A program made the translations under genes and the position numbers. The notes under the pieces are model-generated. The model saw only the letters and a program-made list of their open reading frames with translations, did not search any database and was not told where the DNA came from. A stretch of 64,000 bases of DNA from Bdellovibrio sp. SKB1291214 (GTDB lineage: Bacteria > Bdellovibrionota > Bdellovibrionia > Bdellovibrionales > Bdellovibrionaceae), in the NCBI RefSeq assembly GCF_002209355.2, contig NZ_CP106855.1, forward strand, positions 1,364,001-1,428,000, given 5' to 3'. This document shows positions 1 through 30,067 of this stretch, piece by piece (the stretch's first letter is position 1; every line of letters starts with the position of its first letter).

Positions 1-120
1 CTTTCTTCACGAGCTGGGAACGTGCAAACAAAAGAACAGATGCTAGGCTCCTTAGAGCTGCAAAAGCCTTTGCAGGATTGGTACTTTAAGCAATTAGATT
101 CGTTTTTTCTGCGAACCTAA
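1..120 (+). CDS. C-terminal end of an unidentified protein (cut by window edge)
   Basis: Frame 1 of the + strand is open from the window edge for 39 codons and ends in TAA at 118-120. The encoded tail is ordinary in composition, ending in DSFFLRT, and its stop overlaps the stop of the convergent lipoprotein gene by a few bases. That is a common arrangement in this compact region. Nothing in the 39 residues identifies a family. It could be a chance open frame, but the clean overlap with the neighbour favours a real gene end. Confidence 0.45.
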   Translation, partial: LSSRAGNVQTKEQMLGSLELQKPLQDWYFKQLDSFFLRT

Positions 121-1628: not shown

Positions 1629-1801
1629 GCAAATCCCCCAGAAATGACCTTATTTATTCGGCATCTCGAGAGCCCGATACAACTCGACCTAGGTCAAAGA
1701 AACTCACTAAATCAACAGGTTAACGCATCAAATCAAGATCGGAATATCACCCAGCTTTTCCCAAACCCGATTCTTGCCTTCAGAAGAACCAACATGCTAT
1801 G

Positions 1802-3478: not shown

Positions 3479-3666
3479 GCGGCCTCCTTCCAAACGACCT
3501 CTTCTTTTCGGTCATTTTGTATGGTTACTAAAAGCTTTTCCTCCTGGGTTCTTAAGAGTGTTTCAATCTCAAGCAAGGTCGATATCAGCTGGGCACGTCT
3601 GCGATTTAATTCGCTTTCAGTGATGCTGACCTGTAACTGCTCGATCTTTAAATCCTCTATATTCAA
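3475..3666 (-). CDS. 63-residue coiled-coil protein coupled to the recombinase
   Basis: This small gene precedes the serine recombinase and overlaps its start (TGA/ATG as ATGA), so the two are probably translated together. The start is TTG at 3666, which overlaps the stop of a six-codon leader ORF. The product is charged and predicted helical throughout, with regular E/L/Q spacing, and has no membrane segment or cysteine. By position it could be an accessory or directionality protein for the recombinase. That is inference: no family is recognised and it has no clear helix-turn-helix. Confidence 0.55.
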   Translation of the reverse strand: MNIEDLKIEQLQVSITESELNRRRAQLISTLLEIETLLRTQEEKLLVTIQNDRKEEVVWKEAA

Positions 3667-3683
3667 TTAAAACATTCCTTCAT
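3663..3683 (-). CDS. six-codon leader ORF upstream of the 63-residue gene
   Basis: A strong AAAAGGAGG with a 7-base spacer precedes ATG AAG GAA TGT TTT AAT TGA. The stop overlaps the TTG start of the next gene (TTGA), while that TTG lacks its own ribosome site at normal distance. Ribosomes would therefore load at the leader and restart at the gene. A second leader of exactly the same length precedes the Replic_Relax-like gene in the same element. Confidence 0.4.
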   Translation of the reverse strand: MKECFN

Positions 3684-3706
3684 AAAAATACCTCCTTTTA
3701 AAATCT

Positions 3707-3804
3707 GTTACTTAAACTCTTAATTCTACTTCCACTCCTTTCTTCTTCCCTTACTTATACTCTTACCTACCACCACACACTAAACTCACTCATTCCATCC
3801 CCAT
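3707..3804. other. 98-base stretch with no G on the + strand
   Basis: From 3707 to 3804 the + strand holds only A, C and T, so the - strand, which is the sense strand of the recombinase operon, has no C. No reading frame explains this. It lies directly between the large hairpin and the leader of the recombinase operon. On the + strand it resembles a C-rich, G-poor Rho-loading region; as single-stranded DNA it would be unstructured, as seen near some replication origins. Confidence 0.7.
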
Positions 3805-3893
3805 GCATCCTCACTCCTGACCCCTTACCACCACAACGTTGGGGGTGAGGGGTCAGGAGTGAGGATGCCGGCCCGCAGGGCCGTTGGAATGAG
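3789..3893. repeat. large nested inverted repeat (62-nt hairpin plus outer stem)
   Basis: Bases 3806-3825 are the exact reverse complement of 3848-3867 (20 bp), and pairing extends inward to 27 bp with two mismatches around a loop containing AACGTT. Outside it, CTCATTCC (3789-3796) pairs with GGAATGAG (3886-3893). A small hairpin, CGGCCC-GCA-GGGCCG, sits at 3869-3883. No T-run follows on either strand, so a plain intrinsic terminator is unlikely. An origin, transfer-origin or recombination structure, or an RNA element, are the alternatives. Confidence 0.85.
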
Positions 3894-3902
3894 GGAGTTG
3901 GG

Positions 3903-4727
3903 TTATGAAATCAAGGACATAGGTACTTCCCTGATCTCAAATTTTTGGGGTTCAAGCCTGCTCACCCCTTGATCGCCCCTGTGAGCAGGTGAGTAAATTC
4001 TAGAGCGATCAAAGTGAATGCTCGATAATGGCATTGGCTCTTGTTTGTCGGCGAAATAGACTTGCGGGACTTCGTCCTTTAGAAAGTCAGAAACGTCCGA
4101 GAACAAGAGAATTTTTGAATCGAAAAGATAACAGCTCTCTGCAATTCTGCTGATGATCTCTTTGTCTTTGATGCTTCTTACGAAGTACCACACATGATCA
4201 AGGTTGATGTCTCGGTATTCGCGAAAGATGTCCTTGTACCGTGATTCACTTTTTCTTGTAAGCTCAAGCTCGATGGCAATTTCAACATCTTTGCCTCTAA
4301 TGGGCTCGATCAACATTCCATCAGGGATGAGTTGTTCTTTGGCGTGACGATATTTATAATTTTTGAAGGCGTGAGACTTTAAATGGTACTCGGGAGTCCA
4401 ATCGCGTGCCAATCCCATGTCCTCGAATTTCATTCGAACGTCGTTCAAAAGGACATCGTGATAGATTGTGTTGCGATTTGAGAACTGCATCGACTCTTCT
4501 ACTGCGAGTAGTCGTTTTCCCTTGAGGCCAAGAGTCCATGTACTTGTCCCATCATCCAAAGGAACTGAGCGACGGATGAAAGTTCCATGATCTAATGCTC
4601 GTAGACGTCTGAGTGCCGTGGTCTTTGCGATTGATTGGAAGTGAAGTCGGATCACTTGAGGTGTTGAAAGAACACCGTATTTCTTAAGATTTTCCAAGAG
4701 CAATAGATCTCTTGGTTGAAGGATCAT
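3903..4727 (-). CDS. Replic_Relax-like mobile-element protein
   Basis: The 274-residue product has an N-terminal winged-helix region (about 1-75: LRRLRALDHGTFIRRS, then WTLGLKGKRLL). A nuclease-fold-like region follows, with IPDGML near 137 and VEIAIELELTRKS near 148-160. This is the layout of Replic_Relax proteins found on plasmids and integrative elements, thought to act near replication or transfer origins. The D and ExE residues recall PD-(D/E)xK folds, but activity is unproven. It is expressed toward the hairpin and the recombinase operon. Its start follows a six-codon leader ORF by one base, with no ribosome site of its own. It could instead be a transcription factor of the element. Confidence 0.65.
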   Translation of the reverse strand: MILQPRDLLLLENLKKYGVLSTPQVIRLHFQSIAKTTALRRLRALDHGTFIRRSVPLDDGTSTWTLGLKGKRLLAVEESMQFSNRNTIYHDVLLNDVRMKFEDMGLARDWTPEYHLKSHAFKNYKYRHAKEQLIPDGMLIEPIRGKDVEIAIELELTRKSESRYKDIFREYRDINLDHVWYFVRSIKDKEIISRIAESCYLFDSKILLFSDVSDFLKDEVPQVYFADKQEPMPLSSIHFDRSRIYSPAHRGDQGVSRLEPQKFEIREVPMSLIS

Positions 4728-4728
4728 G

Positions 4729-4749
4729 TTAAAATTTAGCTCGATTCAT
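4729..4749 (-). CDS. six-codon leader ORF upstream of the Replic_Relax-like gene
   Basis: AGGAGG, a 6-base spacer and ATG AAT CGA GCT AAA TTT TAA precede the main ATG (4727) by a single base. The main ATG is about 28 bases from the Shine-Dalgarno sequence, too far for direct loading, so re-initiation after the leader is likely. The construction matches the leader at 3663-3683 in length and layout, but the encoded peptides differ (MNRAKF and MKECFN). Confidence 0.4.
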   Translation of the reverse strand: MNRAKF

Positions 4750-5164
4750 GTGTAACCTCCTAGGTTGATTATGTTTGCATTTGGTTCCTCTCGTAAAAAG
4801 CCCTTAGAAAATGATAATGATTTTAAAATTGGCAAGGTCACTTCAAAAAATAAAGGCGCGGTTTTTTAAGCCAGCGCCTTCTAATCAGAATTTTGTAAAA
4901 GAATCTAGTGGTTCTAATCACCGTTGAACATTTTATAGGACCGATACCATTAAGCCATTGCTCTATCATAAAAGAGTTCATCATCACAAGTTCTCTGCTA
5001 AAAAGCCTTTTCGCGAGGGCAAAAATTCGCGAGATATTTTTGCAGGCTATCGAATAAGCGTCCAAAGTCGTTGGCGAGAGTGATGACGAAGAAACTCACG
5101 TATTGAGCATGGATCTCTTTAATATGATCTAATACTAATGGGGCCAAGACCTTCAACCCAACCC
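4750..5164. other. intergenic stretch without a convincing gene
   Basis: About 415 bases separate the Replic_Relax-like gene from the next secreted-protein gene. A 75-codon frame on the - strand (4838-5065) is open, but it has no ribosome site, odd basic composition and no recognisable family; it may be a decayed gene. AAGGCGC (4853-4859) and GCGCCTT (4874-4880) can form a short hairpin. I see nothing else supported here. Confidence 0.5.
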
Positions 5165-6100
5165 TTATTTCCCTTTTTTTGCCGGAACAATCGCGAATCC
5201 CGCCTCTGGTGACGACGCCGTGATATCCACAAATTTACTTTGGAACTTTCCCGTCATCGCAGCTGCACATAAATCAACAGCATCATCCGCCATGCGGTTT
5301 GATGTAACGAAGAACTCTTTGGCTTTTTCCATGCATTGGGCGCTATTCATGCCTTTGAAAACTTCTTTTGCAGGAATAAAGAAGATGCTGCCAATTCTGG
5401 AAACATCATGACCTCCAATACCAAGACTTTCGCTTTGGCAGGTCGCTGCACAGATATAAACATTTTTAACGGTACGATCGAAGATTAATCTATCGCCGTC
5501 ACGACCTGTGACTTCCTCAGCGAAGGTGCCAACGAAGTTCATGGAAGTGCTATAGTCCCGGTCATCGATACCGGCTAGACCCATGTATTCGTGAATCAAG
5601 ATAGAATAGCCTTGCTCTCCACCCGCAGTGATGAGGTCGCAAGCGGTTTTGTCTACGACGATCAATTTGTAGTCTGGAAAGTTAATGGCGTTCTTTTTTT
5701 CCCCTCGCAACAGAGGCAGGCTTTCACCCTGCACAAATGTTGCATTTTGAATTGCAGTTTGCAGTGCAAGCTCCTGATCTCTACTCAAGGAAGCACGCCA
5801 GTGACCTTGATATACAAGATCCTTGGTTAACTTCACGATGCTCATGGCGCAAGTGTTGCCCCCGCCACCCGAGCCCGGACCGAACTGTTTTGAAACTTCA
5901 AATTTACCAGGGGGTAAATCGCCTTGCTTGAAGCTTATTTTTTTGTTGTCCAAAATTTTAGGCATATACTTTGCCGCTTGAATCAGACGGGCCGTCTCAT
6001 TTTGAGACGGTTTCACAACCTGCTGTTGAGCTTCAGAAACAGAGACAAAATTTGTCACCAAAGCCAAGATCAAAGCGTATACGAAAGATCTGTATTTCAT
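5165..6100 (-). CDS. secreted protein with HEYMG motif (possible metallopeptidase relative)
   Basis: A signal peptide ending near SVSEA-QQQ directs the 311-residue product out of the cytoplasm; AGGAG sits 5 bases before the ATG. A glycine-rich patch (GPGSGGGGNTC, about 74-84) and four or more cysteines follow. Around residue 170, LIHEYMGLAGIDDRDYS has the His-Glu spacing of a metallopeptidase helix, but no second zinc His is evident, so catalysis is uncertain. The gene is followed by nothing co-oriented for 400 bases and is preceded by another small secreted protein. It lies inside the serine-recombinase element, so it is probably cargo acting at the cell surface or in prey. Confidence 0.6.
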   Translation of the reverse strand: MKYRSFVYALILALVTNFVSVSEAQQQVVKPSQNETARLIQAAKYMPKILDNKKISFKQGDLPPGKFEVSKQFGPGSGGGGNTCAMSIVKLTKDLVYQGHWRASLSRDQELALQTAIQNATFVQGESLPLLRGEKKNAINFPDYKLIVVDKTACDLITAGGEQGYSILIHEYMGLAGIDDRDYSTSMNFVGTFAEEVTGRDGDRLIFDRTVKNVYICAATCQSESLGIGGHDVSRIGSIFFIPAKEVFKGMNSAQCMEKAKEFFVTSNRMADDAVDLCAAAMTGKFQSKFVDITASSPEAGFAIVPAKKGK

Positions 6101-6157
6101 GGGAACTCCTACGAATTATTCATAGCAACTACGGTGCCGCCGCTACGGGTGCAACGA

Positions 6158-6571
6158 CTAGACGTCGTTGGAGCCAGCGCATTGCATGCGGATCTTGTTT
6201 TTGAATAACCCCTGAGAGCTTTTAACAGCGAATTCAACTTCGGCAGCGCCACGAATTTCGCTTTCCGTGTAGCTCACAGGACCGACTGGTTTTACGATCA
6301 CGTATTGTTCGGCTCGATCGTCTTTAAGAAGAAGCATTGGTTGGTAAGGTGTCGCCAAGGCTCGTTCAGAAGAAACCGTATATTTAACCCCTTTGATCGT
6401 TATATACACATCACTGTGAACATCTTGAACATCGTTTGCGGCATTGTAGTTGATAACATCCCAGGCAATGGAGTTGCCGGACTTGTCTGCACAACGATAG
6501 TCCTTCGTCGGTGGCGTTGCTTGCGCCAAAACGGAAGTACAAAGAACAGAAACAAAAATAAATGCTTTCAT
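6158..6571 (-). CDS. small secreted protein
   Basis: The 137-residue product has a clear signal peptide (MKAFIFVSVLCTSVLAQA) and a mature part of mixed beta-like character with two cysteines (YRCADKS near 27 and RMQCAG near the end). These could form one disulfide spanning the domain. It is followed on the same strand after 57 bases by the HEYMG secreted protein, suggesting an operon of two exported proteins. No family is recognised. It lies within the serine-recombinase element. Confidence 0.6.
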   Translation of the reverse strand: MKAFIFVSVLCTSVLAQATPPTKDYRCADKSGNSIAWDVINYNAANDVQDVHSDVYITIKGVKYTVSSERALATPYQPMLLLKDDRAEQYVIVKPVGPVSYTESEIRGAAEVEFAVKSSQGLFKNKIRMQCAGSNDV

Positions 6572-6686
6572 AAAATCTCCTAAGTTAATCCCGCCCTATT
6601 TTGAGGCAGCTAGTTGTTGGAATAGGTTATAAAGCATCTCAACGCGCAGCTCCATTTATTTAATATTAATTTAGTACTTATATGAT

Positions 6687-6692
6687 TATAAT
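6687..6692 (+). promoter_or_regulatory. -10 box TATAAT just upstream of the TIGR02147-type gene
   Basis: A perfect TATAAT lies 9 bases before the ATG at 6702. Transcription starting 6-8 bases after it would begin at or within a few bases of the start codon, giving a leaderless or nearly leaderless mRNA. This fits the absence of a Shine-Dalgarno sequence. The -35 position (about 6664-6669, TATTAA) is a poor match. Confidence 0.5.
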
Positions 6693-6701
6693 TTATGAAC
6701 A

Positions 6702-7520
6702 ATGGTTTCAGTCTATGAGTTTACGGACTATAAAACGTATCTAAAGAAGCGGGTTTCCCAGTCCGAGCAGCGTGGTTTTGCGACCCGTTTGGCGGAGGCC
6801 GCGGGCTGCCAGCGGTCTTACTTTTCCACGGTTTTAAATGGCAACATCCATCTTTTACCCGAGCATGCCTTTGGCATCAGTGAGTTCTTAGGACTCTCTC
6901 ATGAAGAGCAAGAATATCTGTTCCTGATTTTGGATTATAACCGCGCTGGGAACGCCGCCTTTCGTTCACATCTTTTAAAAAAAATTAAGGAAAAGCAGCT
7001 CGCCTGGAAGGATTTTAAAAATCGTCTGAAGAAGGACAGCATCGCAGAAGTTGAAGACATGTCGGTTCGACAGTTTTATTATTCTTCGTGGCTGTACGCC
7101 GCAATTCATATCGCGGTCAGCATCCCTAAACTTGGAGAGGTTAAACATTTGTCGACTTACTTTGGAATCTCCGAATCAGTCGCCGTATGGCATCTTGAAA
7201 AATTAGCACAAATGGGATTGGTCGAAAAAAAAAGCGGCCGATGGAGCTGGAAAAGCGGCGATCTGCATCTTTCCAAAGATTCTCCGTGGATTGCAACTCA
7301 TCACTCGAACTGGCGCATGCAGGCTTTAAATGATCTGCCGCAAAGAAAAACCGAATCACTGCACTTTTCGGTCGTGCAATCTTTAAGCAAGGACGATATC
7401 GAAAAACTTCGCTTCCGTATTGTGGAGTGGGTAGAGGAATTTAAAAAGATCGCAAGCCCTTCAACCCCGGAAGAGATTGTGTGTTTGAATTTGGATTTCT
7501 TTAAGCCTGGAGCAAATTAA
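6702..7520 (+). CDS. TIGR02147-family (DUF4423-like) regulator
   Basis: The 272-residue product begins with the VYEFTDYKTYLKK segment typical of TIGR02147 proteins. A helix-turn-helix region follows (about 25-60: TRLAEAAGCQRSYFSTVLNG), then a second winged-helix-like segment (about 150-190: YFGISESVAVWHLEKLAQMGLVEK) and a C-terminal domain. The family is strongly expanded in Bdellovibrio and Fibrobacter relatives and is assumed to regulate transcription. It is divergent from the small secreted proteins at 5165-6571, which are natural candidate targets. As one of few regulators inside the serine-recombinase element, it may control the cargo. Confidence 0.8.
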   Translation: MVSVYEFTDYKTYLKKRVSQSEQRGFATRLAEAAGCQRSYFSTVLNGNIHLLPEHAFGISEFLGLSHEEQEYLFLILDYNRAGNAAFRSHLLKKIKEKQLAWKDFKNRLKKDSIAEVEDMSVRQFYYSSWLYAAIHIAVSIPKLGEVKHLSTYFGISESVAVWHLEKLAQMGLVEKKSGRWSWKSGDLHLSKDSPWIATHHSNWRMQALNDLPQRKTESLHFSVVQSLSKDDIEKLRFRIVEWVEEFKKIASPSTPEEIVCLNLDFFKPGAN

Positions 7521-7851
7521 TTAAAATTTCACGTTGGAACTCAGGTCATCAACCAAATCTTTAAGAGCCTTAAAACGTATATATTTGCACTGGCTTCTTT
7601 GTTTCAAATAAGGCCATCTACTAGGGAACGCTTGAAGCAGGGGCTTCGTCTTGTGGGTCGGTCCCTAAATGGCGTCTGTATTAGTTTGCGAGCTATCTTG
7701 ACTCTCCTTAATTGACCGCGATCACTTAGTCAGAACCGAGACTTGTCACAAGGAAGCCAAGCCCATTTAAATCTAGACTGTCATGTTGATATGTAAGAAA
7801 CTCTCTTTGAATAAAAATTATGATTTATGAAAACACTTAAGTGAGGTTTGA
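7521..7851. other. intergenic stretch with a possible structured RNA
   Basis: These 331 bases hold no supported gene. A nested stem is visible: TAGGGA (7622-7627) pairs with TCCCTA (7662-7667), enclosing GAAGC (7634-7638) with GCTTC (7643-7647). It is followed by no T-run. The rest is AT-rich near 7790-7850, where a promoter for the next secreted-protein gene is expected. Confidence 0.35.
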
Positions 7852-8301
7852 ATGAAAGCAATTGGAACGATACTCTTTTTAATGCTTCCCACCGTGTGCC
7901 TAGGAAAAACTTACGATTGCTTGATAGAGCATAAAGATACCAATCCTGAAAAGAATAAAAAAGTGTGGTCCGGAAATCTGACACCTAAAGGGTTAAATGA
8001 GGCGAAAGCTGAAGTTGTAATTGTTAATGCCGATGGGACGGGAACATCTGTCGAGAAGGTTGTCGGGGTTATAAATGACGCCAGCGCTTTAGGTGAAAAA
8101 CTAAAGCCCTATAATACATTACTCGCGATCGGCTTGAAAGAAGAGGCTGGCAAGTTGGTTCTCACTCTCGGGCATGTTGATATTTCCAAAACTGGCAATA
8201 TGATTCCTTTTGATGCGATCTCATGGTCGTCCACCGGCACCACACTTATTGGTGTGAAAGATTTAAGCAGAGACTTGGAAGTTTCTTGTCGTGCTAAATA
8301 G
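7852..8301 (+). CDS. small secreted protein, last cargo gene of the serine-recombinase element
   Basis: A signal peptide (MKAIGTILFLMLPTVCLG) precedes a 130-residue mature part with two cysteines, one near the N-terminus (TYDCLIEH) and one at the extreme C-terminus (EVSCRAK). The same end-to-end cysteine layout is seen in the 137-residue secreted protein at 6158-6571, although the sequences are not obviously related. Alternating polar and hydrophobic residues suggest a beta-sandwich. The gene ends about 107 bases before the stranded recombinase tail and faces it. No family recognised. Confidence 0.6.
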   Translation: MKAIGTILFLMLPTVCLGKTYDCLIEHKDTNPEKNKKVWSGNLTPKGLNEAKAEVVIVNADGTGTSVEKVVGVINDASALGEKLKPYNTLLAIGLKEEAGKLVLTLGHVDISKTGNMIPFDAISWSSTGTTLIGVKDLSRDLEVSCRAK

Positions 8302-8316
8302 CCATCAACCACTAGA

Positions 8317-8358
8317 TTCTGTCCCGTGCTTTGACAAACAATTCACGGGACAACAGAA
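8317..8358. terminator. bidirectional hairpin between convergent frames
   Basis: GTCCCGTG (8321-8328) pairs with CACGGGAC (8344-8351), and TTCT/AGAA extend the stem beyond a three-base bulge. It lies 15 bases after the stop of the secreted-protein gene and before the convergent recombinase tail. The lack of a T-run makes it a weak terminator call. Confidence 0.4.
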
Positions 8359-8407
8359 CCAGGTCAAATCCCTCAAAACCAACAAGGCTTGTTTTCTTAA
8401 AAAGCTC

Positions 8408-8623
8408 TTACTTTCTCCGCTTCTTATCTTCTTTAAGCCGCTGCCAAACATGAGCCTGACTGGCTCCAATATGCTTCGCAACCTTAACCGTGGACCGAAA
8501 GACGCTCATTAGCCCCTCGAGATCTCTTACAGACACTACCTTAGGCTCCGGATAAGCCTCCAGCTCAAAGATAACCACCGCGGAGTGTTCGTCTACTTTA
8601 TGGCTCTCTCCGCCATTTTTGAT
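8408..8623 (-). pseudogene. displaced C-terminal tail of the serine recombinase
   Basis: Read on the - strand from the repeat at 8623, the frame starts IKNGG, exactly where the recombinase at 1802-3478 also reads IKNGG, and in the same phase. It continues 66 more codons to TAA at 8408-8410. The tail contains a helix-turn-helix-like segment (VAKHIGASQAHVWQRLK) and a basic end (KEDKKRRK). It has no start codon or ribosome site of its own, and the frame is closed just upstream at 8648-8650. Joining the two ends, as in a circular form of the element, would give a 588-residue recombinase. It is therefore better called a separated gene part than a decayed gene. Confidence 0.75.
8609..8623 (+). repeat. 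attachment repeat, middle copy (right end of the serine-recombinase element)
   Basis: TCCGCCATTTTTGAT matches 1913-1927 exactly. Upstream, CTCTCC (8604 on) matches the tRNA again if six bases are skipped. To its left is the recombinase tail; to its right begins the satellite. It is the junction of the two elements. Confidence 0.8.
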
Positions 8624-8668
8624 TTTAACCTCAAGAAAATTAGATAGTTAGATTTTATCGGGAAATCT

Positions 8669-8688
8669 ACCCACAAAAAAACCCACAA
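8669..8688 (+). promoter_or_regulatory. paired ACCCACAA motifs, candidate integrase arm sites (left)
   Basis: ACCCACAA occurs at 8669-8676 and 8681-8688, a 12-bp period, about 45 bases inside the left end of the satellite. The related pair ACCTACAA/ACCGACAA with the same period lies near the right end. Such short direct repeats are typical of arm-type sites bound by the N-terminal domain of tyrosine integrases. Confidence 0.55.
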
Positions 8689-8777
8689 CTAAAATTTTTG
8701 AAATATTTTTAAGGGTGCTGCCGACTCAAAATTTGCTCTCGTTAAAGTACCACATCCACTGATGCTTATTTTAAGCT

Positions 8778-9716
8778 CTACAAATCTGGAATAACTTTTT
8801 TTAGACGCTGTGAGATCTCTTTTCTTAATTGAATTTGCGAGAGACCTTGAAGCCTGACTATTTCTGTCTTATCTCCAATCAAAGAAAACAGATCGTTACT
8901 CGCAAGCTTTCGAGATTCTTTTATAACTTCATTATACTTTTTTAGTTCTTCATTGGCCAAAAATGCTGCTACCGCTGCATCTATCTCGTCCACCGATTTA
9001 AAGTTTTTTGCCTTCTGAATAAAGGAATCATTTGCTGCATCAACAACGCCAGCTTTTTTTAGAACTTGTTTTGTGTAGGTTATTAAATCTTTTTGAGTCC
9101 AGTTATGCTCCCCCAGATCACTGGTGGCTACCCTACCATAATAATCAGCAAGCAAAAAACCAACTTTGGCTCTGAACTCACCCTTAAGACTAGCTACTCT
9201 ATGATTTAGAAGCTCTTGATAACAACTCGCTCGAAAAGAGAATGAAACATTTAATAAGGCAACGGAGTCTTCCGGCAAACCTTTAGTCTTCGGAAGAAAG
9301 AATAAATTTTTGGCTTCCGAATTGTTAATTAGACGACTTGTCTTAGATAATGTGGCGTCATATCTTGGGGATGATAGAAGATAAAATCCACTTTTTTTCT
9401 TTGCACCAGAAAATTCAAGCTCTCTTGAAAGTACACTTTGCAGAGGCCTAATAAGACAGATAACCATATGACTGAGGTTCGGCTCTCCTAATTTCCCGGC
9501 TTCACGCTGTGACGGTCTCCTAGCTAAATCACAAGATTGCGAAAGGACCATCGCAAACTTTCGCTCATAAGGTTCGTGATTAATTTTTGGGTAGTAGCAT
9601 TTAAAACGAAGGCGAAAAAGGCCCGTAACCTCAATTATATCCCCTTGAAAAAGAGATCCTAAATCTTCAGGCTCAGCATAAATATACTCGGGAACTTTAT
9701 TCTTGGGATAGCTCAT
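8778..9716 (-). CDS. 312-residue cargo protein of unknown function
   Basis: The product is soluble, with no signal peptide or membrane segment. Residues 20-70 contain GSLFQGDIIEVTG followed by MVLSQSCDLARRP near 57-69, a conserved-looking GDI...SQSCDL pattern that I recall from uncharacterised proteins but cannot tie to a tested function. The C-terminal third is helical and lysine-rich. It lies at the left end of the satellite, where cargo such as anti-phage genes is usual, downstream of a 74-codon gene on the same strand (13-base gap). A role in competition with other phages is inference from position only. Confidence 0.6.
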   Translation of the reverse strand: MSYPKNKVPEYIYAEPEDLGSLFQGDIIEVTGLFRLRFKCYYPKINHEPYERKFAMVLSQSCDLARRPSQREAGKLGEPNLSHMVICLIRPLQSVLSRELEFSGAKKKSGFYLLSSPRYDATLSKTSRLINNSEAKNLFFLPKTKGLPEDSVALLNVSFSFRASCYQELLNHRVASLKGEFRAKVGFLLADYYGRVATSDLGEHNWTQKDLITYTKQVLKKAGVVDAANDSFIQKAKNFKSVDEIDAAVAAFLANEELKKYNEVIKESRKLASNDLFSLIGDKTEIVRLQGLSQIQLRKEISQRLKKVIPDL

Positions 9717-9728
9717 AGTAAGAGTCTA

Positions 9729-9953
9729 TTAGAATGCGAGGCGCTTGCTCCACATTTCGCGCTCTACAAGATTAGAAATACGTTCACGCTCACGTTTAAC
9801 AAGCGCGATTTTGATAGCAGAATGAATTTTAGAAGATTCCGTATGGCTTACACCTGTCTCTTTTTGAGATACGGCCTTCTTTTTAGTCGTTTGCTTCATA
9901 ATCATTTCTATCTGCATGGCAGATCTTCTACTGCCTATCGGTATTGATGGCAA
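9729..9953 (-). CDS. small basic protein paired with the 312-residue cargo gene
   Basis: Up to 74 residues, rich in K, R and E, with a long amphipathic helix toward the end (VKRERERISNLVEREMWSKRL). The start is uncertain: in-frame ATG codons at 9953, 9917, 9905 and 9899 lack a strong ribosome site, and MKQTTKKKAV (9899, 56 residues) looks the most natural. The stop lies 13 bases before the start of the 312-residue gene, so the two should be cotranscribed. An antitoxin- or adaptor-like role is possible, but nothing in the sequence proves it. Confidence 0.5.
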   Translation of the reverse strand: MPSIPIGSRRSAMQIEMIMKQTTKKKAVSQKETGVSHTESSKIHSAIKIALVKRERERISNLVEREMWSKRLAF

Positions 9954-9975
9954 AGAGCTAAATAGAGAATAGCAA

Positions 9976-10482
9976 ATGCATGGTGTCAGGTCAAATTTAT
10001 TTCGCTTTGATAGTATAAAGTACTATCAATTTTACGCCGATAGTCTCGATATGCCGAATCAATCAAACCCAGTACAGGACATAGTTTCAGCCGTTTATGA
10101 CCTTATAAACGCCGGAGCATCCGAAAAATGCAGGCTTATGATAGTAGATACTACTGTCGTTGACCGTTTACTGAAATTTGTTTCCGTTGAAACGATGCAA
10201 AGGTTCATTAGGGCAGAGATGAGCCAAGCCCCCAACCCAGAAAGTCCGCAATTTAAGGTTTGGATTAAGGAATCTCGAAGTCAGACCCGACTTTCGCAAA
10301 GAGACTTCGCCTCTAAGCTTAATGAAATAACAGGATTGAAGATTCACGGAAGCGACATTGGTAACTTAGAAACTGGAGCGAGGCCCGAGGCATATGCGAT
10401 CGAACGCTTGATATCCATTCGATCGACAATCATCACCGCGCTACCCCATATACTTTCAGAATTACGCGAAAGCAGCCTATAA
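9976..10482 (+). CDS. helix-turn-helix (XRE-like) protein of the satellite
   Basis: The C-terminal half (about 95-150) has the XRE pattern: TRLSQRDFASKLNEITGLKI, then SDIGNLETGARP. The N-terminal half is unassigned and may bring subunits together. Two starts are possible, ATG 9976 (168 residues) and ATG 10051 (143 residues). I cannot decide, as neither has a clear ribosome site, but the operator at 10009-10027 would lie in the promoter if 10051 is used. It is divergent from the two-gene cargo, and two 7-5-7 palindromes lie at and just inside its 5' end, pointing to autoregulation and control of the cargo. Confidence 0.65.
   Translation: MHGVRSNLFRFDSIKYYQFYADSLDMPNQSNPVQDIVSAVYDLINAGASEKCRLMIVDTTVVDRLLKFVSVETMQRFIRAEMSQAPNPESPQFKVWIKESRSQTRLSQRDFASKLNEITGLKIHGSDIGNLETGARPEAYAIERLISIRSTIITALPHILSELRESSL
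10009..10027. promoter_or_regulatory. operator palindrome GATAGTA-N5-TACTATC
   Basis: A perfect 7-bp inverted repeat with a 5-base spacer. The same geometry recurs at 10140-10158 (GATAGTA-N5-TACTGTC, one mismatch), and a half site GATAGT lies at 10039-10044. It sits between the divergent cargo pair and the helix-turn-helix gene, a likely binding site for that protein. Confidence 0.6.
10140..10158. promoter_or_regulatory. second operator-like palindrome, inside the helix-turn-helix gene
   Basis: GATAGTA-N5-TACTGTC has the same spacing as the site at 10009-10027 with one mismatch in the right half. It lies 131 bases downstream, within the coding region. A loop or cooperative pair between the two sites would fit a phage-type repressor, but binding is not shown. 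Confidence 0.45.
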
Positions 10483-10524
10483 GAAGAGAAAAGCGAAAGC
10501 ATTAAGTTCGTATTCTAGATTATT

Positions 10525-10914
10525 TCACTTTTCGGTGGCTAATGCGCGCTCCTCAACCACCAAACGAATCACATGAGCCTTTGCATCTTCTACCAACTTT
10601 TTAGAGCGCTCAGAAATGAGTCGAGAGGACTCTTCTTTCCGATTTAAACTGCCTACGCCTGTATTGAGATATCTTAGGGCAGTTCGCTGGTAAGAATTCA
10701 ATTCAGCAAGACAGCCTGCGTGAGCTGCCTCTGCAATTTCCGAGGGAGTGGCGTTAGAAAGAGCTAATCTTGCACCTTCGCTATTAATGCAGTCCGTGTA
10801 TGCCAATAAAGACTTTTTTACTCTTTCAAGCCCTGCATCTTCGGGAGCTCCTACTTTATCCATGCTTGCACAGCTAACCGTGAATAAAATTATAACTGAG
10901 AGAACCCATTTCAT
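10525..10914 (-). CDS. satellite-borne lipoprotein
   Basis: The 129-residue product has a short lipoprotein signal with lipobox FTVSC at residues 11-15, then a largely helical mature part with two further cysteines. It lies between the two repressor-like genes of the satellite and opposite to both. Lipoproteins carried by prophages and satellites often block superinfection at the surface, and this is the best guess here; a predation or envelope role is equally untested. No family is recognised. Confidence 0.65.
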   Translation of the reverse strand: MKWVLSVIILFTVSCASMDKVGAPEDAGLERVKKSLLAYTDCINSEGARLALSNATPSEIAEAAHAGCLAELNSYQRTALRYLNTGVGSLNRKEESSRLISERSKKLVEDAKAHVIRLVVEERALATEK

Positions 10915-10937
10915 TTTCTATCCCTTCAACTTAGGTC

Positions 10938-10970
10938 TAGTTCGGCCTATCGGTTCGGTATGTCGAACTA
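10938..10970. promoter_or_regulatory. repeated GTTCG/CGAAC operator region
   Basis: TAGTTCG (10938-10944) is the reverse complement of CGAACTA (10964-10970), and an inner GTTCG (10953-10957) also pairs with CGAAC (10964-10968). GTTCGG is directly repeated at 10940 and 10953. The cluster lies between the lipoprotein and the Cro/CI-like gene that diverge from it, about 32 bases before the GTG start. It is the expected place for that repressor to bind. Confidence 0.55.
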
Positions 10971-11001
10971 ACTGTCGGTATATTTTAGATATTCCATAGG
11001 G

Positions 11002-11223
11002 GTGAGAGAAAATAAAGATAAGTTGATAGCGCTAGGTTTAAGAATTAGTGATGAACGCAAAAGACGCGGCATCACTATGGAGCGATTAGCCTATGAAATG
11101 GACCTGAGCAAAGGGAACCTTTCAGAGATCGAGCGCGGAATACGTGATCCTAAGTTCTCAACTCTACTGGCGATTGCCGAAGGACTTGATACAACCATTT
11201 CCAAACTACTTAAAGATCTTTGA
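11002..11223 (+). CDS. Cro/CI-type helix-turn-helix repressor
   Basis: The 73-residue protein is almost entirely one XRE domain: LGLRISDERKRRGITMERLA, then MDLSKGNLSEIERG (recognition helix about 33-46), DPKFSTLLAIAEGL and ISKLLKDL. The start codon is GTG at 11002 with only a weak purine stretch before it. Repeated GTTCG/CGAAC sites lie just upstream. Its 3' end overlaps that of the terminase small subunit gene by 14 bases, tail to tail. It probably controls the satellite lytic/lysogenic state. Lacking a C-terminal cleavage domain, it would need another release mechanism, such as binding of a helper-phage protein. Confidence 0.85.
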   Translation: MRENKDKLIALGLRISDERKRRGITMERLAYEMDLSKGNLSEIERGIRDPKFSTLLAIAEGLDTTISKLLKDL

Positions 11224-11719
11224 TTTCCGGCTTATTAATCTGCCCTATTAATTTCGCGAGGCTTGGTTGGCCTACTGGCGATTCTTTTTTAAAGAAACCG
11301 ACATGCTTTCCTAATAGTTCGAGCGCACGAATTTTGCTGTAGAAATTGATCTTGTATGTTCTTTGGCCGAGGCCTGGTCCTTCAATAATTTCGATGGCTG
11401 AAATTGAAGTTGCCAATCCTCTTGGCAAGCTTGCTATTGGTAATAGTTCTCCATTCTTTCCAAAGAGATCTCGTATATCTCGAAAAGCGATATTCTTCAG
11501 TCCATCTACGACTAAATCTGCATTCACTTCGAGACGTGAAGCTCGCTCCTCCATGAGCATCGTCAATTTTGATTGAACTGAAGTTTTCTGAAGTAATTGG
11601 TATCCCTGCTCCATTGCAGTATGGGGACTGTAACCAGCTCTGATAGCAGCCTTCTTAGCATTCAAATCCACCATGTATTCTAAGCAGAAACGTTCTTGTT
11701 TTGAACTTAAGTGACACAT
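11210..11719 (-). CDS. terS: phage terminase small subunit
   Basis: The 169-residue product opens with the Terminase_2 signature: LSSKQERFCLEYMVDLNAKKAAIRAGYS in outline (about 4-32), then a second helical segment and a C-terminal oligomerisation region. In phages this subunit recognises the packaging site and loads the large subunit. Here no large terminase, portal or capsid gene is present, so it would only make sense if it redirects the packaging motor of a helper phage, as TerS of phage-inducible islands does. It is the last gene of the integrase-AlpA-helicase strand, 67 bases after the helicase gene. Confidence 0.88.
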   Translation of the reverse strand: MCHLSSKQERFCLEYMVDLNAKKAAIRAGYSPHTAMEQGYQLLQKTSVQSKLTMLMEERASRLEVNADLVVDGLKNIAFRDIRDLFGKNGELLPIASLPRGLATSISAIEIIEGPGLGQRTYKINFYSKIRALELLGKHVGFFKKESPVGQPSLAKLIGQINKPEIKDL

Positions 11720-11786
11720 AGTGATTCATTCCTTAACTATGAATTACAGAATATTGAAGTTCTCCACTATAAAAGCAAATAATCCT

Positions 11787-13229
11787 TCATGAAGCGTCAT
11801 TATCCGCATGTTCGACTCTAATTTCTCTTTTAGGATGAAAGTCATTGTTCTGCGAATCCAATTTCATAATCTCTATAAAATTGAGGTTTAGACCAAGGTA
11901 AACACTTCCAGCTGAAGTTCTTTTTTGTTTAAAATTTCGTTCTTTTAAGATCTTAGAAAAACTTTTCATGGAACGCCGTCCCTCGCCGCGTTGTTCTTTC
12001 CAACACTGATATGACCTATAAAGGCGTGATGCCGATTCTTGAAAATCTTTTCCTTGAATACAACATTCAGATAACCAAATTCCAAACGTATCTTCTTCTT
12101 CCAAGTATTCAGCTGTTGCTTTAGTAATGACCTCGGGGGGTTGAAGACCGACCTGCTGCCATTCAAGACATCCATCTAATGCCCATTTTAAAATCCCATC
12201 AGACTCTTCTTTCCATTTTTCCTTCAAGGTGGCGTCTCGCTGTGCCGCCTCGATCTTAACTGTAAAGGGAACCAGGTGAAGACGTCTGCGAATCGCATCA
12301 TCGACAGCCCTGAATGACGGCTTATGATTTCCGGCAATAATTAACGTAAATTGAGGGTAAAATTCAAAAAAATCCTTCCTCATGAACCGAGCAGAAATCT
12401 TATCTTTTCCCGTAAGAGTTTTTATGAGCGACTCGTTCCAGCGCTTTCCTTGATCCACCTCTTGCGCGACCACCAAGCGTTTACCGACAAGCTTCGCTAG
12501 TTCGGTTGGATGTCGTGATGTTAAGCTTTCCGTAAATGTATCCATGCTAGCCGTTGCGCTGTAACTACCTAGGGCATGAATTAACCCCTCTAGAAAGGTT
12601 CCTTTTCCATTTCCTCCGCCACCATAGAAAAAGTCGAGACATTCCTCTTTGGGATCACCGACAAGGCAGTATCCAGCTAACCTCTTTAAGTATGCGACTA
12701 AATCCTCATTGCCATTTGTGATATTATTTAAAAAAGCAATCCAGTTTGGACATTCACCTCGTGGTGTTGCGTTGGTCATTTGCATTATTCTGTCTTCTGG
12801 ATCGTGGGGTCGAAGTTCTCCGGTTTTAAGATCAACCGTGCCTCCAGGAGTATTAAGAAGGTATAAGCTCCTGTCCCAAATATCTACCTCGCAGAAATGT
12901 CGCTCGTCACCTCGTGCGAGCCGCTCAACTGCTGCGATTGTGCCTGCGGACGTAATGGCCTTCGCAATCCTATTTCTTTGTTCTTCTCTGAGGGTTGCAT
13001 CCTCTAAAGCACGATGAGCCATATTTCGACATGTATCTCGTACAAATTGTTTAATAACCTCATCCGAAGCTCGGCACCATCTTTGACCGTTATATTTTAT
13101 CCAGCCGAGTTCCGCACAATAGAGAAGTTCGTAATGCCTCAAAGAAAACTCATCGGCAATTGCATCATCAGAGTAACGGACAGTCTCATCCGGTAATTTA
13201 TGTAGATTTGATCTGCCGTTACTATTCAT
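11787..13229 (-). CDS. D5/P4-family SF3 helicase (primase-helicase C-terminal type)
   Basis: The 480-residue product has a D5_N-type region (LYLLNTPGGTVDLKTGEL about 123-140, then the LVAYLKRLAGYCLVGD region). An SF3 ATPase follows, with Walker A GGGGNGKGT (about 203-211), Walker B RLVVAQEVD and sensor IIAGNHKP. It should unwind DNA at the satellite origin. The start at 13229 is chosen because ATGAATAG couples it to the stop of the AlpA-like gene; the longer frame to 13283 has no signal. An N-terminal primase domain, usual in P4 alpha (777 residues), is absent, so priming must come from elsewhere. Confidence 0.9.
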   Translation of the reverse strand: MNSNGRSNLHKLPDETVRYSDDAIADEFSLRHYELLYCAELGWIKYNGQRWCRASDEVIKQFVRDTCRNMAHRALEDATLREEQRNRIAKAITSAGTIAAVERLARGDERHFCEVDIWDRSLYLLNTPGGTVDLKTGELRPHDPEDRIMQMTNATPRGECPNWIAFLNNITNGNEDLVAYLKRLAGYCLVGDPKEECLDFFYGGGGNGKGTFLEGLIHALGSYSATASMDTFTESLTSRHPTELAKLVGKRLVVAQEVDQGKRWNESLIKTLTGKDKISARFMRKDFFEFYPQFTLIIAGNHKPSFRAVDDAIRRRLHLVPFTVKIEAAQRDATLKEKWKEESDGILKWALDGCLEWQQVGLQPPEVITKATAEYLEEEDTFGIWLSECCIQGKDFQESASRLYRSYQCWKEQRGEGRRSMKSFSKILKERNFKQKRTSAGSVYLGLNLNFIEIMKLDSQNNDFHPKREIRVEHADNDAS

Positions 13230-13443
13230 TGTCGGTTCCCTTATCGTTTTTAAGGCAGTCCCTAGCGGCGACCCTCTGCTCAATCCAAAGGTTCACCTCT
13301 GATTCGAGCCATCCAACACTTCGACTACTTAGGTTAATTGGTTTTGGAAAACATCCGGTTTTCAAGAACCGGTAAATTGATGACCGGGTTAGACCGACTT
13401 TATCTGAAACTTCTGACAATCTTAAAATATTATTACTTGGCAT
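13222..13443 (-). CDS. AlpA-family regulator (excisionase-like)
   Basis: The 73-residue protein matches the AlpA/MerR-like pattern: ILRLSEVSDKVGLTRSSIYR, then GCFPKPINLSSRSVGWLESEV and a terminal helix. In P4-like elements such proteins turn on the integrase and act in excision. AGGAGG lies 7 bases before the ATG at 13443, deciding the start over an upstream in-frame ATG. Its stop overlaps the start of the helicase gene (ATGAATAG), so the two are translated in step. It lies on the same strand as integrase, helicase and TerS. Confidence 0.92.
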   Translation of the reverse strand: MPSNNILRLSEVSDKVGLTRSSIYRFLKTGCFPKPINLSSRSVGWLESEVNLWIEQRVAARDCLKNDKGTDNE

Positions 13444-13529
13444 CGCATGACCTCCTGAGAGGCAACATGCGCCCATAAGAGGGTAATTGAAAGCTATGTG
13501 GCGGGGGCACTTGTGCGAATATTAAATGG

Positions 13530-14123
13530 CTAAAACGCCCCTTTTATTTCCTGTGTTGCCTGAATTCTTGCCGTTGGACCAAATTTAACGCCAAGATGAA
13601 ATTCTACACTATCGCAGACTCGATCAAATAACGATCGCTTAGAATATCCTCTTTTCCTTTTTCCTGTTGTCGGTTTCTTTCCGATATTTAGAAAGAAAAT
13701 TGCGATATGCCTCACATAGGCAAGCTCAATATTAACATCACTTCTTATGACGATTTTTTTTAAAACTTTACCCTGTGTCTTCAGTCGATCCTCAGAAATA
13801 TCGAGCATTTCACTCAGGAGTTTCTTAGCATCATTAAGTTTGATTTGCGATTTATCCTCTGCAGCCCATTGTATTTGGCTGGCTATCGGTACAATTGATG
13901 GGCCATTCCGCGTACTGTCGATACGAGCGAGAGCTTTCAAAGCGGCCCGTAAAGAGTTTCTGACTAGTTTTATATCCATATCGTTCTTCAAATATAAATT
14001 ATTCGGAAAACTATCTATCATGCCATCTACAAACTCTTTAACACCCGGCAGGTCGCCCACGATGGATATAACATCTCTTCTAATATCGTTTTTAATTTTC
14101 TGAGTCACTGCAACTTGTTTCAA
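13530..14123 (-). CDS. 197-residue satellite protein of unknown function
   Basis: The start is TTG at 14123, with GAGGA at proper distance and 13 bases after the integrase stop, so it is cotranscribed with the integrase. The product is helical and basic, with no cysteine pair, signal peptide or obvious helix-turn-helix. A short lysine/arginine run (KKPTTGKRKRGYSKR) precedes the C-terminal part. Its location between integrase and alpA suggests an accessory role in recombination or early control, but no family is recognised. Confidence 0.65.
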   Translation of the reverse strand: MKQVAVTQKIKNDIRRDVISIVGDLPGVKEFVDGMIDSFPNNLYLKNDMDIKLVRNSLRAALKALARIDSTRNGPSIVPIASQIQWAAEDKSQIKLNDAKKLLSEMLDISEDRLKTQGKVLKKIVIRSDVNIELAYVRHIAIFFLNIGKKPTTGKRKRGYSKRSLFDRVCDSVEFHLGVKFGPTARIQATQEIKGAF

Positions 14124-14136
14124 ATATGTTCCTCAA

Positions 14137-15375
14137 CTAAAAAGTATTTTTCTCCAAATACGAAATGGTGCTTTTTGCACCTGGCTTAATCATACAGAAG
14201 GTTTCCCAATCCTTCATCAAAACGCGTCTCTTCAAAAGGGAATCTCCTCTCCGATAGGCAGCCTCAGCTTTATCCTTTAAAGTATGTGCCAATGCCGCCT
14301 CCGCAACTTCCCTCGGGTGGTTTGTGAATTCACCCGCCCAGTCTCTAAATGTACTCCGAAAACCATGCGTTGTTACATCATAGCCCATCCGACCAATAAG
14401 TACCAAAAGAGCCATATTTGATAATGGTCTACCAGCTTTATTCGAGGGAAATATATAAATTTCGCCACTACCAATCTCTTTAAGCTTCTTCAATATCTCC
14501 AATGAACGCCTTCCCAATGGAACCCGATGTTCTTTTTTTGCCTTCATTCTAGATGGTGGAATAATCCAGACTTCCTCTTCAAAGGAAATCTCGTCCCACT
14601 TTGCATTTAAGGCCTCTGAAGTTCGAACTGCGTTGAGTATGGTAAACTCTAAAGCCAATGAAGAAACTCCATCTCGCATTCTTAGGTCCTCCATAAACTC
14701 AGGAAGGTCGGCCAATGGAAGTGCTTTATGGTGTTTGATAGGTTGAACCATAGATCTCTTAGGTAGCAGTTTATCAAGCCGCCCCCGCCAACGAGCTGGG
14801 TTGTCTCCTGATCGGTACCCATGAACAGACGCCCAATCCAAAACTAATTCAATACGACTTCGGACCCGGCTTGCAGTTTCGGTTTTGGTTCTCCAAATTT
14901 TGTCTAAACACTCCATGACTGCAGCTGTATCAATTGAATCGACAGATTTAGAACCGACAATAGGGCTGACATATGTCTTTAAGGTATTTGTCCATTGGTC
15001 AGCATGTTTCGCATTTTTCCATCCTGCCCGATGACTTTCGATATAAAGAGCTGCACATTCATCAAAGGTAATTTTCCTTGCGGTATCCAAGGCCCGCTGT
15101 TGGTTTCTTCTGTTTCTTTCCTCGATTGGATCAAGACCGTCAATTAGAAGCTTTCGACAGTCCAAAGACTTGGATCGTGCCTCTGCTAGGGTTATGGTCT
15201 TTACCGACCCCAATCCCATAGAGCGCGATCGTCCATTAAGCATGAAACGAAACAGCCATGACTTACTACCATTTCGACTGACTTGAAGATATAGACCACC
15301 ACCATCAGCGGTCAGGCCCGGCGCCTTAGTGTTTTGAACTTTCAAAGAATTTAATTTTAGCCTTAAGCTTGCCAT
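14137..15375 (-). CDS. P4-type tyrosine integrase
   Basis: The 412-residue protein has an N-terminal DUF4102-type arm-binding domain (about 1-85, GLTADGGGLYLQVS), a SAM-like core-binding domain (about 100-190) and a catalytic domain. The catalytic domain carries R251 (NAVRTSEAL), H337xxR340 (THGFRSTFR), H364 and nucleophile Y374 (AAYRRGD). It integrates the satellite at the tRNA-Ser 3' end. Its start, with AGGAG upstream, lies 160 bases from the right attachment repeat, with candidate arm sites between. Placement at the end away from the tRNA is less usual for P4 types, where the integrase typically abuts the tRNA. Confidence 0.95.
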   Translation of the reverse strand: MASLRLKLNSLKVQNTKAPGLTADGGGLYLQVSRNGSKSWLFRFMLNGRSRSMGLGSVKTITLAEARSKSLDCRKLLIDGLDPIEERNRRNQQRALDTARKITFDECAALYIESHRAGWKNAKHADQWTNTLKTYVSPIVGSKSVDSIDTAAVMECLDKIWRTKTETASRVRSRIELVLDWASVHGYRSGDNPARWRGRLDKLLPKRSMVQPIKHHKALPLADLPEFMEDLRMRDGVSSLALEFTILNAVRTSEALNAKWDEISFEEEVWIIPPSRMKAKKEHRVPLGRRSLEILKKLKEIGSGEIYIFPSNKAGRPLSNMALLVLIGRMGYDVTTHGFRSTFRDWAGEFTNHPREVAEAALAHTLKDKAEAAYRRGDSLLKRRVLMKDWETFCMIKPGAKSTISYLEKNTF

Positions 15376-15385
15376 TCGTTCTCCT

Positions 15386-15405
15386 ACCTACAAACCAACC
15401 GACAA
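15386..15405 (+). promoter_or_regulatory. paired ACCTACAA/ACCGACAA motifs, candidate integrase arm sites (right)
   Basis: ACCTACAA (15386-15393) and ACCGACAA (15398-15405) repeat with a 12-bp period, just upstream of the integrase start. The spacing and ACCNACAA consensus equal those of the pair at 8669-8688 near the other end of the satellite. Confidence 0.55.
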
Positions 15406-15534
15406 AGGGCGGCGAGATTCAATAGAACGGAATGAAACAAATACGGACTTCATTTTCAATGAAATTAAACAAACTTATGTACTTACGATTAAGATAATAT
15501 ATCCTGGGACGCAGTGGGAAGACGCATTGCCGGA

Positions 15535-15553
15535 CTCCCTGTCCGCCATTTTT
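15535..15553 (+). repeat. attachment repeat, right copy (end of the satellite)
   Basis: The 19 bases CTCCCTGTCCGCCATTTTT equal the tRNA-Ser 3' end at 1906-1924. No tRNA surrounds this copy: the sequence to its left is unrelated to a serine tRNA. It marks the return to host chromosome. Confidence 0.9.
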
Positions 15554-15585
15554 TGTAAACGTACCCAAGATAAAATCATATCAAA

Positions 15586-15984
15586 TTAGAACCACAAATC
15601 TTTAACCGTATCGCCATCTGACGGCAGGTCTTCGAACTTATCAAAACCATCGAAGTGATCGATGCGCAGATGTTGGATCTCTTCGGGTTTTTCAACCAGA
15701 CGGAAATTTACCGCGGCCCTAAATTCGCCATTTTCATAGGGCTTATTAGAAATATAATAAGCTAGTCCACCGCAAGTCGTACAAAAATGAAATGAGTTGT
15801 GTTTGTTTGCCCATGCATAGGATGTCGTAGGTCCATCAACTTCAATGCTTGATGGGCTTGCGCCATAGGCCCACAATGCACCATACCTGCGACAAAGCCC
15901 ACAGTTGCATGCCGTGACACTTTCGATAGCGATTTTATATTTCCATTTTACGTTGCCGCAATGACAAGAACCTTGGATCATCAC
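15586..15984 (-). CDS. GFA-family zinc protein
   Basis: The 132-residue product carries the GFA (glutathione-dependent formaldehyde-activating enzyme-like) zinc sites: GSCHCGNVKW near residue 5, CNCGLCRRYG near 27-36 and FCTTCGG near 68-74. Members bind zinc and sometimes glutathione adducts, though most have no proven reaction. It is the first host gene past the satellite. An SRPBCC protein gene lies next on the same strand, 70 bases upstream, and may be cotranscribed. Confidence 0.85.
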   Translation of the reverse strand: MMIQGSCHCGNVKWKYKIAIESVTACNCGLCRRYGALWAYGASPSSIEVDGPTTSYAWANKHNSFHFCTTCGGLAYYISNKPYENGEFRAAVNFRLVEKPEEIQHLRIDHFDGFDKFEDLPSDGDTVKDLWF

Positions 15985-16054
15985 TCACCCTTCCGTAAAA
16001 GGATAGGGTCGCATATTCCAGGCAAGTTTGAAATCATTATCATCAATAGGCCTA

Positions 16055-30052: not shown

Positions 30053-30067
30053 AGACCGACGGTCTAT
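30051..30067. promoter_or_regulatory. perfect palindrome over the start codon of the DEAD-box helicase gene
   Basis: ATAGACCG-A-CGGTCTAT (8-bp arms, one-base spacer) covers the ATG at 30052 and the position where a ribosome site should be. As DNA it could be an operator; as RNA it would be a tight hairpin hiding the start codon. Confidence 0.6.

What the first reader, a model, noticed from the sequence alone, without database searches (positions are those of the whole stretch)
8609..15553. PICI/P4-like phage satellite in a Bdellovibrio-like genome
P4-type integrase, AlpA, SF3 helicase and terminase small subunit lie on one strand, with phage-type repressors and cargo, and no virion genes. In Enterobacteria and Firmicutes this set defines phage satellites that steal helper particles. 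I know of no well-studied satellite from predatory bacteria, so a helper phage of Bdellovibrio and effects on predation are open questions.
Basis: partly seen in the sequence, partly recalled or inferred. Interest (0 to 1): 0.85.

Follow-up and report, generated by a model that had tools for sequence, protein, structure and literature searches.

The report
TerS-carrying phage satellite at tRNA-Ser
A 6.9-kb piece of DNA inserted behind a serine tRNA gene has the parts of a phage parasite (it can insert itself, probably copy itself, and carries a packaging "key" protein, but makes no virus particle of its own), and similar packaging-key islands recur in several related genomes of this bacterial phylum, which makes a predator-phage-satellite system testable.

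Summary
Window 8606-15553 is a discrete island with int, a 197-aa ORFan, alpA, an SF3 helicase and terS on the minus strand, all open, plus repressor-like genes and cargo; no virion or lysis genes. Its right att is a 19-bp perfect copy of the 3' end of tRNA-Ser(GGA) at 1829-1919; its left att is the distal att of a second island (element 1) lying between it and the tRNA. Same-genus genomes give the series: empty tRNA site (G012), element 1 alone (G022), both (this genome).
The decisive new evidence is phylum-wide. Of 12 strong TerS loci in 369 genomes, none has a detectable large terminase or portal nearby, and eight have a tyrosine integrase and a tRNA within about 10 kb. Five of these, the window included, are 5.9-10.3 kb islands bounded by repeats of the tRNA 3' end. 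This argues against a one-off decayed prophage.
Best reading: a small PICI-type satellite that supplies its own pac-type TerS to a helper's TerL. It is not P4-like (no sid/psu/delta, no primase domain) and small for a PICI; its gene order is that of PICMI plus terS. Helper, packaging and effects on predation are unproven.

The parts
1829..1919 (+). tRNA-Ser(GGA), the attachment gene of the tandem array
   Evidence: ARAGORN; 3' end CTCCCTGTCCGCCATTTTT at 1906-1924 repeated exactly at 15535-15553
1925..8605 (.). Element 1: neighbouring island with large serine recombinase (1802-3493 -) and a MobC-like protein (3903-4727 -); context, not part of the satellite
   Evidence: about 80% identical over 1-4919 in G022; its end 8444-8620 conserved in G022 and 8312-8620 in G020
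8606..8620 (+). Left attachment site CTCTCCGCCATTTTT (distal att of element 1)
   Evidence: homology to G022 and G020 stops here
8778..9716 (-). 312-aa cargo ORF, function unknown (contains VLSQSCDL)
   Evidence: no Pfam/NCBIfam; weak phrog_4575; two distant relatives in the phylum
9729..9953 (-). 74-aa ORF, unknown, may not be a gene
   Evidence: no family
9976..10482 (+). 168-aa protein with weak C-terminal HTH
   Evidence: HTH_31 E 0.04, below cut-off
10525..10914 (-). 129-aa protein with lipoprotein-like signal, cargo
   Evidence: sequence; no family
11002..11223 (+). 73-aa XRE/Cro-type regulator, convergent with terS
   Evidence: HTH_3 E 2e-11
11210..11719 (-). Terminase small subunit (TerS), SF6/SPP1 type
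   Evidence: Terminase_2 E 8e-34, phrog_51 E 1e-32; PDB 3zqp/2cmp
11787..13283 (-). SF3 replicative helicase without primase domain (likely start ATG near 13232)
   Evidence: D5_N, DUF5906; TIGR01613 and helicase-only NF011296; PDB 7ola
13222..13476 (-). AlpA: excisionase/activator
   Evidence: PF05930 E 6e-20
13530..14123 (-). 197-aa ORFan between int and alpA, 13 bp downstream of int (position of PICMI iolg/icg)
   Evidence: no family; no relative in 369 phylum genomes, phages or viral contigs
14137..15375 (-). Tyrosine integrase with Arm-DNA-bind_3, targets tRNA-Ser 3' ends
   Evidence: relatives up to 59% identical, several with CT[CG]TCCGCCA upstream of int
15376..15534 (-). Region between int start and att: probable int promoter and arm sites
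   Evidence: position only
15535..15553 (+). Right attachment site, 19 bp identical to the tRNA-Ser(GGA) 3' end
   Evidence: G012 shows the empty site

Best explanation
It is an integrated phage satellite of PICI type. Shown from sequence: a 6.9-kb unit bounded by tRNA-Ser-derived att sites, with its own integrase, AlpA, SF3 helicase and TerS, and no virion genes. Inferred: a helper phage or its product raises AlpA; AlpA with the integrase excises the circle (the 197-aa protein may assist, as iolg does in PICMI); the helicase drives replication into concatemers using host or helper primase and polymerase; the element's SF6-type TerS marks a pac site on satellite DNA and hands it to the helper's TerL for headful packaging into helper particles; the DNA then re-enters at tRNA-Ser 3' ends in a new cell. 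The XRE-type and 168-aa proteins would keep it quiet or act on the helper; the 312-aa protein and lipoprotein are cargo of unknown use.
For: Gene set and intact frames. Exact att to the tRNA, empty sites in relatives. Lone TerS recurs: 12 strong TerS loci among 369 phylum genomes; 0 of 12 with TerL or portal nearby by HMMs whose TerL model finds 9 of 11 held-out phage TerLs; 8 of 12 with integrase and tRNA within about 10 kb; 5 with both att ends. One of them (G337, 10.3 kb, tRNA-Glu) has int-AlpA-Rep-TerS with other replication genes. A phrog_2 TerL search finds none in this genome, and none in 9 of 12 TerS genomes searched. The integrase family is used by 9-11 kb capsid-forming islands at tRNA-Ser. 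TerL of the Bdellovibrio phage phi1422 is 40-42% identical to TerLs whose partner TerS are relatives of this one.
Against: No helper, excision, replication or packaging has been observed. No ori iterons or pac site were recognised. Size is half that of a typical PICI, and the integrase lineage and att motif are also used by a phage-like contig (L112). No whole-element relative was found. The TerL of phi1422 is of the right family, but its own TerS is unrelated.
Confidence: 0.8

Rival explanations
1. Decayed prophage: a temperate phage lost everything after terS and kept the early region by chance.
For: The order int-alpA-helicase-terS is also that of prophage early genes ending at the start of the late operon; helicase, int and terS all have phage relatives; relatives of the helicase sit in true phages.
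Against: All frames are open and both att ends are intact; no fragments of terL, portal or capsid remain; lone TerS in tRNA islands recurs in unrelated genomes with other replication genes; no TerL found in the genome.
Confidence: 0.1
2. A relic of a capsid-forming satellite (cf-PICI) that lost its capsid genes and now depends fully on a helper, or cannot move.
For: Integrase relatives ride in 9-11 kb islands with capsid, portal and terminase at tRNA-Ser; L117 even has int - 188-aa ORF - alpA - AAA_25 - capsid - portal - TerS.
Against: Its TerS groups with free phage TerS rather than with the long-branched one of L117, though that tree is weak; no trace of capsid genes; helicase module differs.
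Confidence: 0.07
3. Plain integrative island whose TerS-like protein serves as a DNA-binding regulator, moved without phages (for example by the neighbouring element 1 with its MobC-like protein).
For: Tandem position next to element 1 at the same tRNA; TerS N-terminus is a DNA-binding HTH.
Against: TerS matches the Terminase_2 family almost full length, including the part after the HTH; no conjugation genes in the element.
Confidence: 0.03

Closest known systems
PICMI (Phage-Inducible Chromosomal Minimalist Islands, Vibrionaceae; PMC10803314)
   Same: Small size class; order int - unknown ORF next to int - alpA - DUF5906 replication protein; no capsid remodelling genes
   Different: PICMI sits at fis, lacks terS, and its protein is a primase; here the site is tRNA-Ser(GGA), the protein is helicase only, and terS is present
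Gram-negative PICIs such as EcCICFT073 and PmCI172 (PMC6092414)
   Same: Integrase, AlpA, replication gene; no lysis genes; some carry terS
   Different: 12-15 kb, own att sites not used by prophages, capsid-like or interference genes; here 6.9 kb, tRNA-Ser, none of these recognised
SaPIs that carry terS
   Same: Own TerS expected to redirect the helper's TerL; SF3 helicase (best PDB match 7ola; recalled, not checked, as a SaPI5 protein)
   Different: SaPIs have stl/xis, a primase and often capsid-size genes and occur in Gram-positive cocci
Capsid-forming satellites in IMG/VR with the same integrase type (L117, L127, L113)
   Same: 46-51% identical integrase, tRNA-Ser 3' end att upstream of int; in L117 the same int - ORF - alpA order
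   Different: They carry capsid, with portal genes in L117 and L127; the window element has terS only
P4
   Same: Arm-DNA-bind_3 integrase, AlpA/Vis-like protein, P4-family SF3 helicase domain
   Different: No sid, psu or delta; helicase lacks the primase domain; TerS present, which P4 lacks

Membership tests
PICI (criteria of PMC6092414) | Integrase, replication module and master regulator in conserved order | tested here: met
   int, AlpA, SF3 helicase on one strand
PICI (criteria of PMC6092414) | No phage structural or lytic genes | tested here: met
   Pfam and PHROGs scan of the main ORFs; TerS is the only packaging gene
PICI (criteria of PMC6092414) | Att site never occupied by prophages | tested here: inconclusive
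   tRNA-Ser 3' end; same integrase type with the same motif in L112, which has tail genes
PICI (criteria of PMC6092414) | Size typically 12-15 kb | tested here: not met
   8606-15553 = 6.9 kb
PICI (criteria of PMC6092414) | Helper-dependent induction and packaging | not testable with these tools
   needs a helper phage and lysates
PICMI (model of PMC10803314) | Co-located int (PF00589), AlpA (PF05930) and DUF5906 protein | tested here: met
   all three Pfam families hit above cut-off
PICMI (model of PMC10803314) | Integration next to fis | tested here: not met
   attachment gene is tRNA-Ser(GGA)
PICMI (model of PMC10803314) | No packaging-redirection gene such as terS | tested here: not met
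   terS at 11210-11719
P4-like satellite | sid/psu/delta capsid and regulatory genes | tested here: not met
   no such family in Pfam or PHROGs
P4-like satellite | Alpha protein with primase plus helicase | tested here: not met
   helicase part only; relatives are about 700-1000 aa
cf-PICI | Own capsid, portal and TerL | tested here: not met
   none in the island
Phage satellite in general | Integration and replication genes, complete boundaries, no virion set | tested here: met
   replication and helper use not tested in vivo

The most novel reading that the evidence does not exclude
Bdellovibrionota carry a recurring class of very small 'TerS-key' satellites: tRNA-integrated islands of about 6-10 kb whose only packaging gene is an SF6/SPP1-type TerS, with interchangeable replication and cargo modules, which ride in phages of predatory bacteria. 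That would make a four-level chain of prey, predator, phage and satellite.
Probability: 0.4. Interest if true: 0.75.

Novelty: new variant of a known kind. Interest (0 to 1): 0.62.

Why it matters
I found no paper in the open library that describes a phage satellite of Bdellovibrio or Bdellovibrionota. If the element is packaged by a phage of its host, predatory bacteria would have the same satellite-helper conflict as their prey, and satellites could change phage load, gene flow and so predation. The minimal gene set (int, ORFan, alpA, helicase, terS) is a tractable test of how little a satellite needs. The recurrent lone TerS gives a simple search handle for satellites in poorly studied phyla.

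Tried and rejected
Helper in the same genome: no TerL by phrog_2. A TerL-like HMM hit at 28757-30082 proved to be a DEAD-box RNA helicase. phi1422 as direct source of the TerS: its small ORF before terL is unrelated and there is no DNA or translated similarity to the element. DNA-level relatives of the element in phage records: none. Structures of the 197-aa and 312-aa proteins: single-sequence models, mean pLDDT 42 and 44, unusable. Relatives of the 197-aa protein: none in 369 genomes, phages or viral contigs. Defence-system models: only generic HTH hits. Iterons, ori or pac in the intergenic regions: nothing convincing. A TerS tree to test one satellite lineage: mostly unresolved; only G089 and G133 join firmly. 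Most weak TerS-profile hits (E about 1e-4 to 1e-8, matching only the HTH part in ORFs of about 100-140 aa) were treated as an unrelated conserved HTH protein. SatelliteFinder itself could not be run.

Full report
What is there. The minus-strand block 11210-15375 encodes, in transcription order, a P4-type tyrosine integrase, a 197-aa ORFan, AlpA, an SF3 helicase and a terminase small subunit, all intact. To the left lie an XRE regulator (+), a lipoprotein-like gene (-), a weak HTH protein (+), a 74-aa ORF and a 312-aa gene (-), none with a known virion or lysis function. The helicase has D5_N and DUF5906 domains but no primase domain. It matches a helicase-only NCBI family end to end (NF011296, positions 29-461 of 469), so it need not be a truncation.

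Boundaries. The only tRNA in the window is tRNA-Ser(GGA) at 1829-1919. Its 3' end, CTCCCTGTCCGCCATTTTT (1906-1924), recurs perfectly at 15535-15553 and nowhere else in the window; a 12-bp core recurs at 8609-8620. Three genomes of the genus show the stages. In G012 the tRNA is followed within 14 bp by the window's right flank (window 16061 on), with neither island. G022 has tRNA and element 1 (about 80% identical over the first 4.9 kb) and its terminal att, without element 2. This genome has both. In G020 and G022 the homology stops exactly at the left att. The stretch 15554-16050 (a GFA-like gene) is not in these relatives, so the right edge is less tightly pinned than the left.

Is it a decayed prophage? 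The helicase, integrase and TerS all have phage relatives, so this had to be tested. I searched 369 genomes of the phylum with the TerS sequence and then with a profile. Counting this element, 12 loci are strong. I fetched the surroundings and searched them with HMMs for TerL and portal built from phages whose TerS is related; the TerL model found 9 of 11 held-out phage TerLs, and none of the 12 TerS loci has TerL or portal nearby. At least two of the loci lie on short contigs, one with TerS at its very start, so absence is weaker there. Eight of the 12 (window, G337, G089, G133, G273, G247, G121, G266) have a tyrosine integrase and a tRNA within about 10 kb. In five, both att ends are visible: tRNA-Ser (window), tRNA-Glu 54 bp (G337), tRNA-Pro 21 bp (G089), tRNA-Pro 19 bp (G133), tRNA-Met 45 bp (G273). 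The G337 island (10.3 kb) has int - ORF - AlpA - replication initiator - ORF - radical SAM - TerS, the same plan with other parts. G247 has RepB-like primase and DUF927 genes before TerS at tRNA-Ser(GGA). Cargo of the others includes an AAA_15/AAA_21 ATPase and DUF559 nucleases. A genome-wide search finds no TerL of phrog_2 type in 9 of the 12 genomes searched, and in the other three the hit is on another contig than the TerS. Repeated retention of TerS without TerL is hard to explain by decay and is what TerS-carrying satellites do.

The integrase lineage. The integrase (relatives in IMG/VR up to 59% identical) recognises tRNA-Ser 3' ends. In seven of the twelve relatives that have sequence upstream of int, CT[CG]TCCGCCA lies there in the same orientation as in the window, about 100-400 bp away (counted by hand from those outputs). 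Three of these are islands bounded on both sides with the tRNA-Ser 3' end at the far side (L113, L117, L127; 9-11 kb). They carry capsid, and L117 and L127 also portal, with no tail genes found among the ORFs scanned: capsid-forming satellites by content. L117 shares int - ORF of 188 aa - alpA. At least one other relative (L112) has tail sheath and baseplate genes. So the integrase is shared between phages and satellites.

How it probably works. Excision needs Int and AlpA; in PICMI and EcCICFT073 AlpA is the switch (PMC10803314, PMC6092414). Replication would use the SF3 helicase with borrowed primase. Packaging would use the element's own TerS. The TerS is of the SF6/SPP1 type (PDB 3zqp and 2cmp; the phage names are recalled), which by general knowledge is a pac-type headful packager. 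A candidate helper type exists: the TerL of the Bdellovibrio phage phi1422 is 40-42% identical to TerLs of phi297, Midgardsormr38 and a Mannheimia phage, whose TerS are related to this one. phi1422's own TerS is different, so a fit is possible but unproven. Excision, replication, packaging and helper are inferences.

What it is not. It is not P4 (no sid, psu, delta; no primase domain). By the published PICI criteria it meets organisation and absence of virion genes, fails typical size, and is doubtful on an exclusive att site. By the PICMI model it meets the three gene families but not the fis site, and it has terS. I therefore call it a PICI-type phage satellite, a small variant between PICMI and TerS-carrying PICIs, and do not file it under either name.

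Limits. One genome per species is held, so strain-level mobility could not be tested. The TerS tree is unresolved, so a single origin of the phylum's TerS islands is not shown. No defence function was found for the cargo.

Noticed in passing
window 1925-8605: A second island in tandem at the same tRNA-Ser, with a CcrB/XisF-like large serine recombinase whose frame reads through the tRNA antisense, and a MobC-like protein; about 80% conserved over its first part in G022.
   Followed up: partly
L002 1417-1564 (G000:1547317-1547464): tRNA-Ser(GCT) carries at its 3' end a 64-bp, 98% copy of the right end of element 1 including the att core; the acceptor stem looks mismatched. Possibly a scar of an excised element.
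   Followed up: partly
L183 1562, 7565, 9711, 13630: Four near-identical direct repeats of about 122 bp spaced along 12 kb around a lone TerS gene in G256; cassette-array-like.
   Followed up: no
L117, L127, L113, L114, L118, L129: IMG/VR contigs with the window-type integrase plus capsid and mostly portal and TerL in 9-12 kb: likely capsid-forming satellites, several at tRNA-Ser.
   Followed up: partly
L088 4845-15241: 10.3-kb TerS/AlpA island at tRNA-Glu with a radical SAM protein and DUF6575 as cargo in another family of the same phylum.
   Followed up: partly
L090 9902-11473: Bd3614-like cytidine deaminase directly after a lone TerS in G355.
   Followed up: no
L100 (G010:C299): Same-genus contig with a TerL gene followed by a portal-sized ORF: a possible prophage or phage of the genus and candidate helper type.
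   Followed up: partly
window 8778-9716: 312-aa cargo protein with a VLSQSCDL motif and a weak phrog_4575 match, a family also matched by a 175-aa protein in the G273 island (L094 10434-10961).
   Followed up: partly
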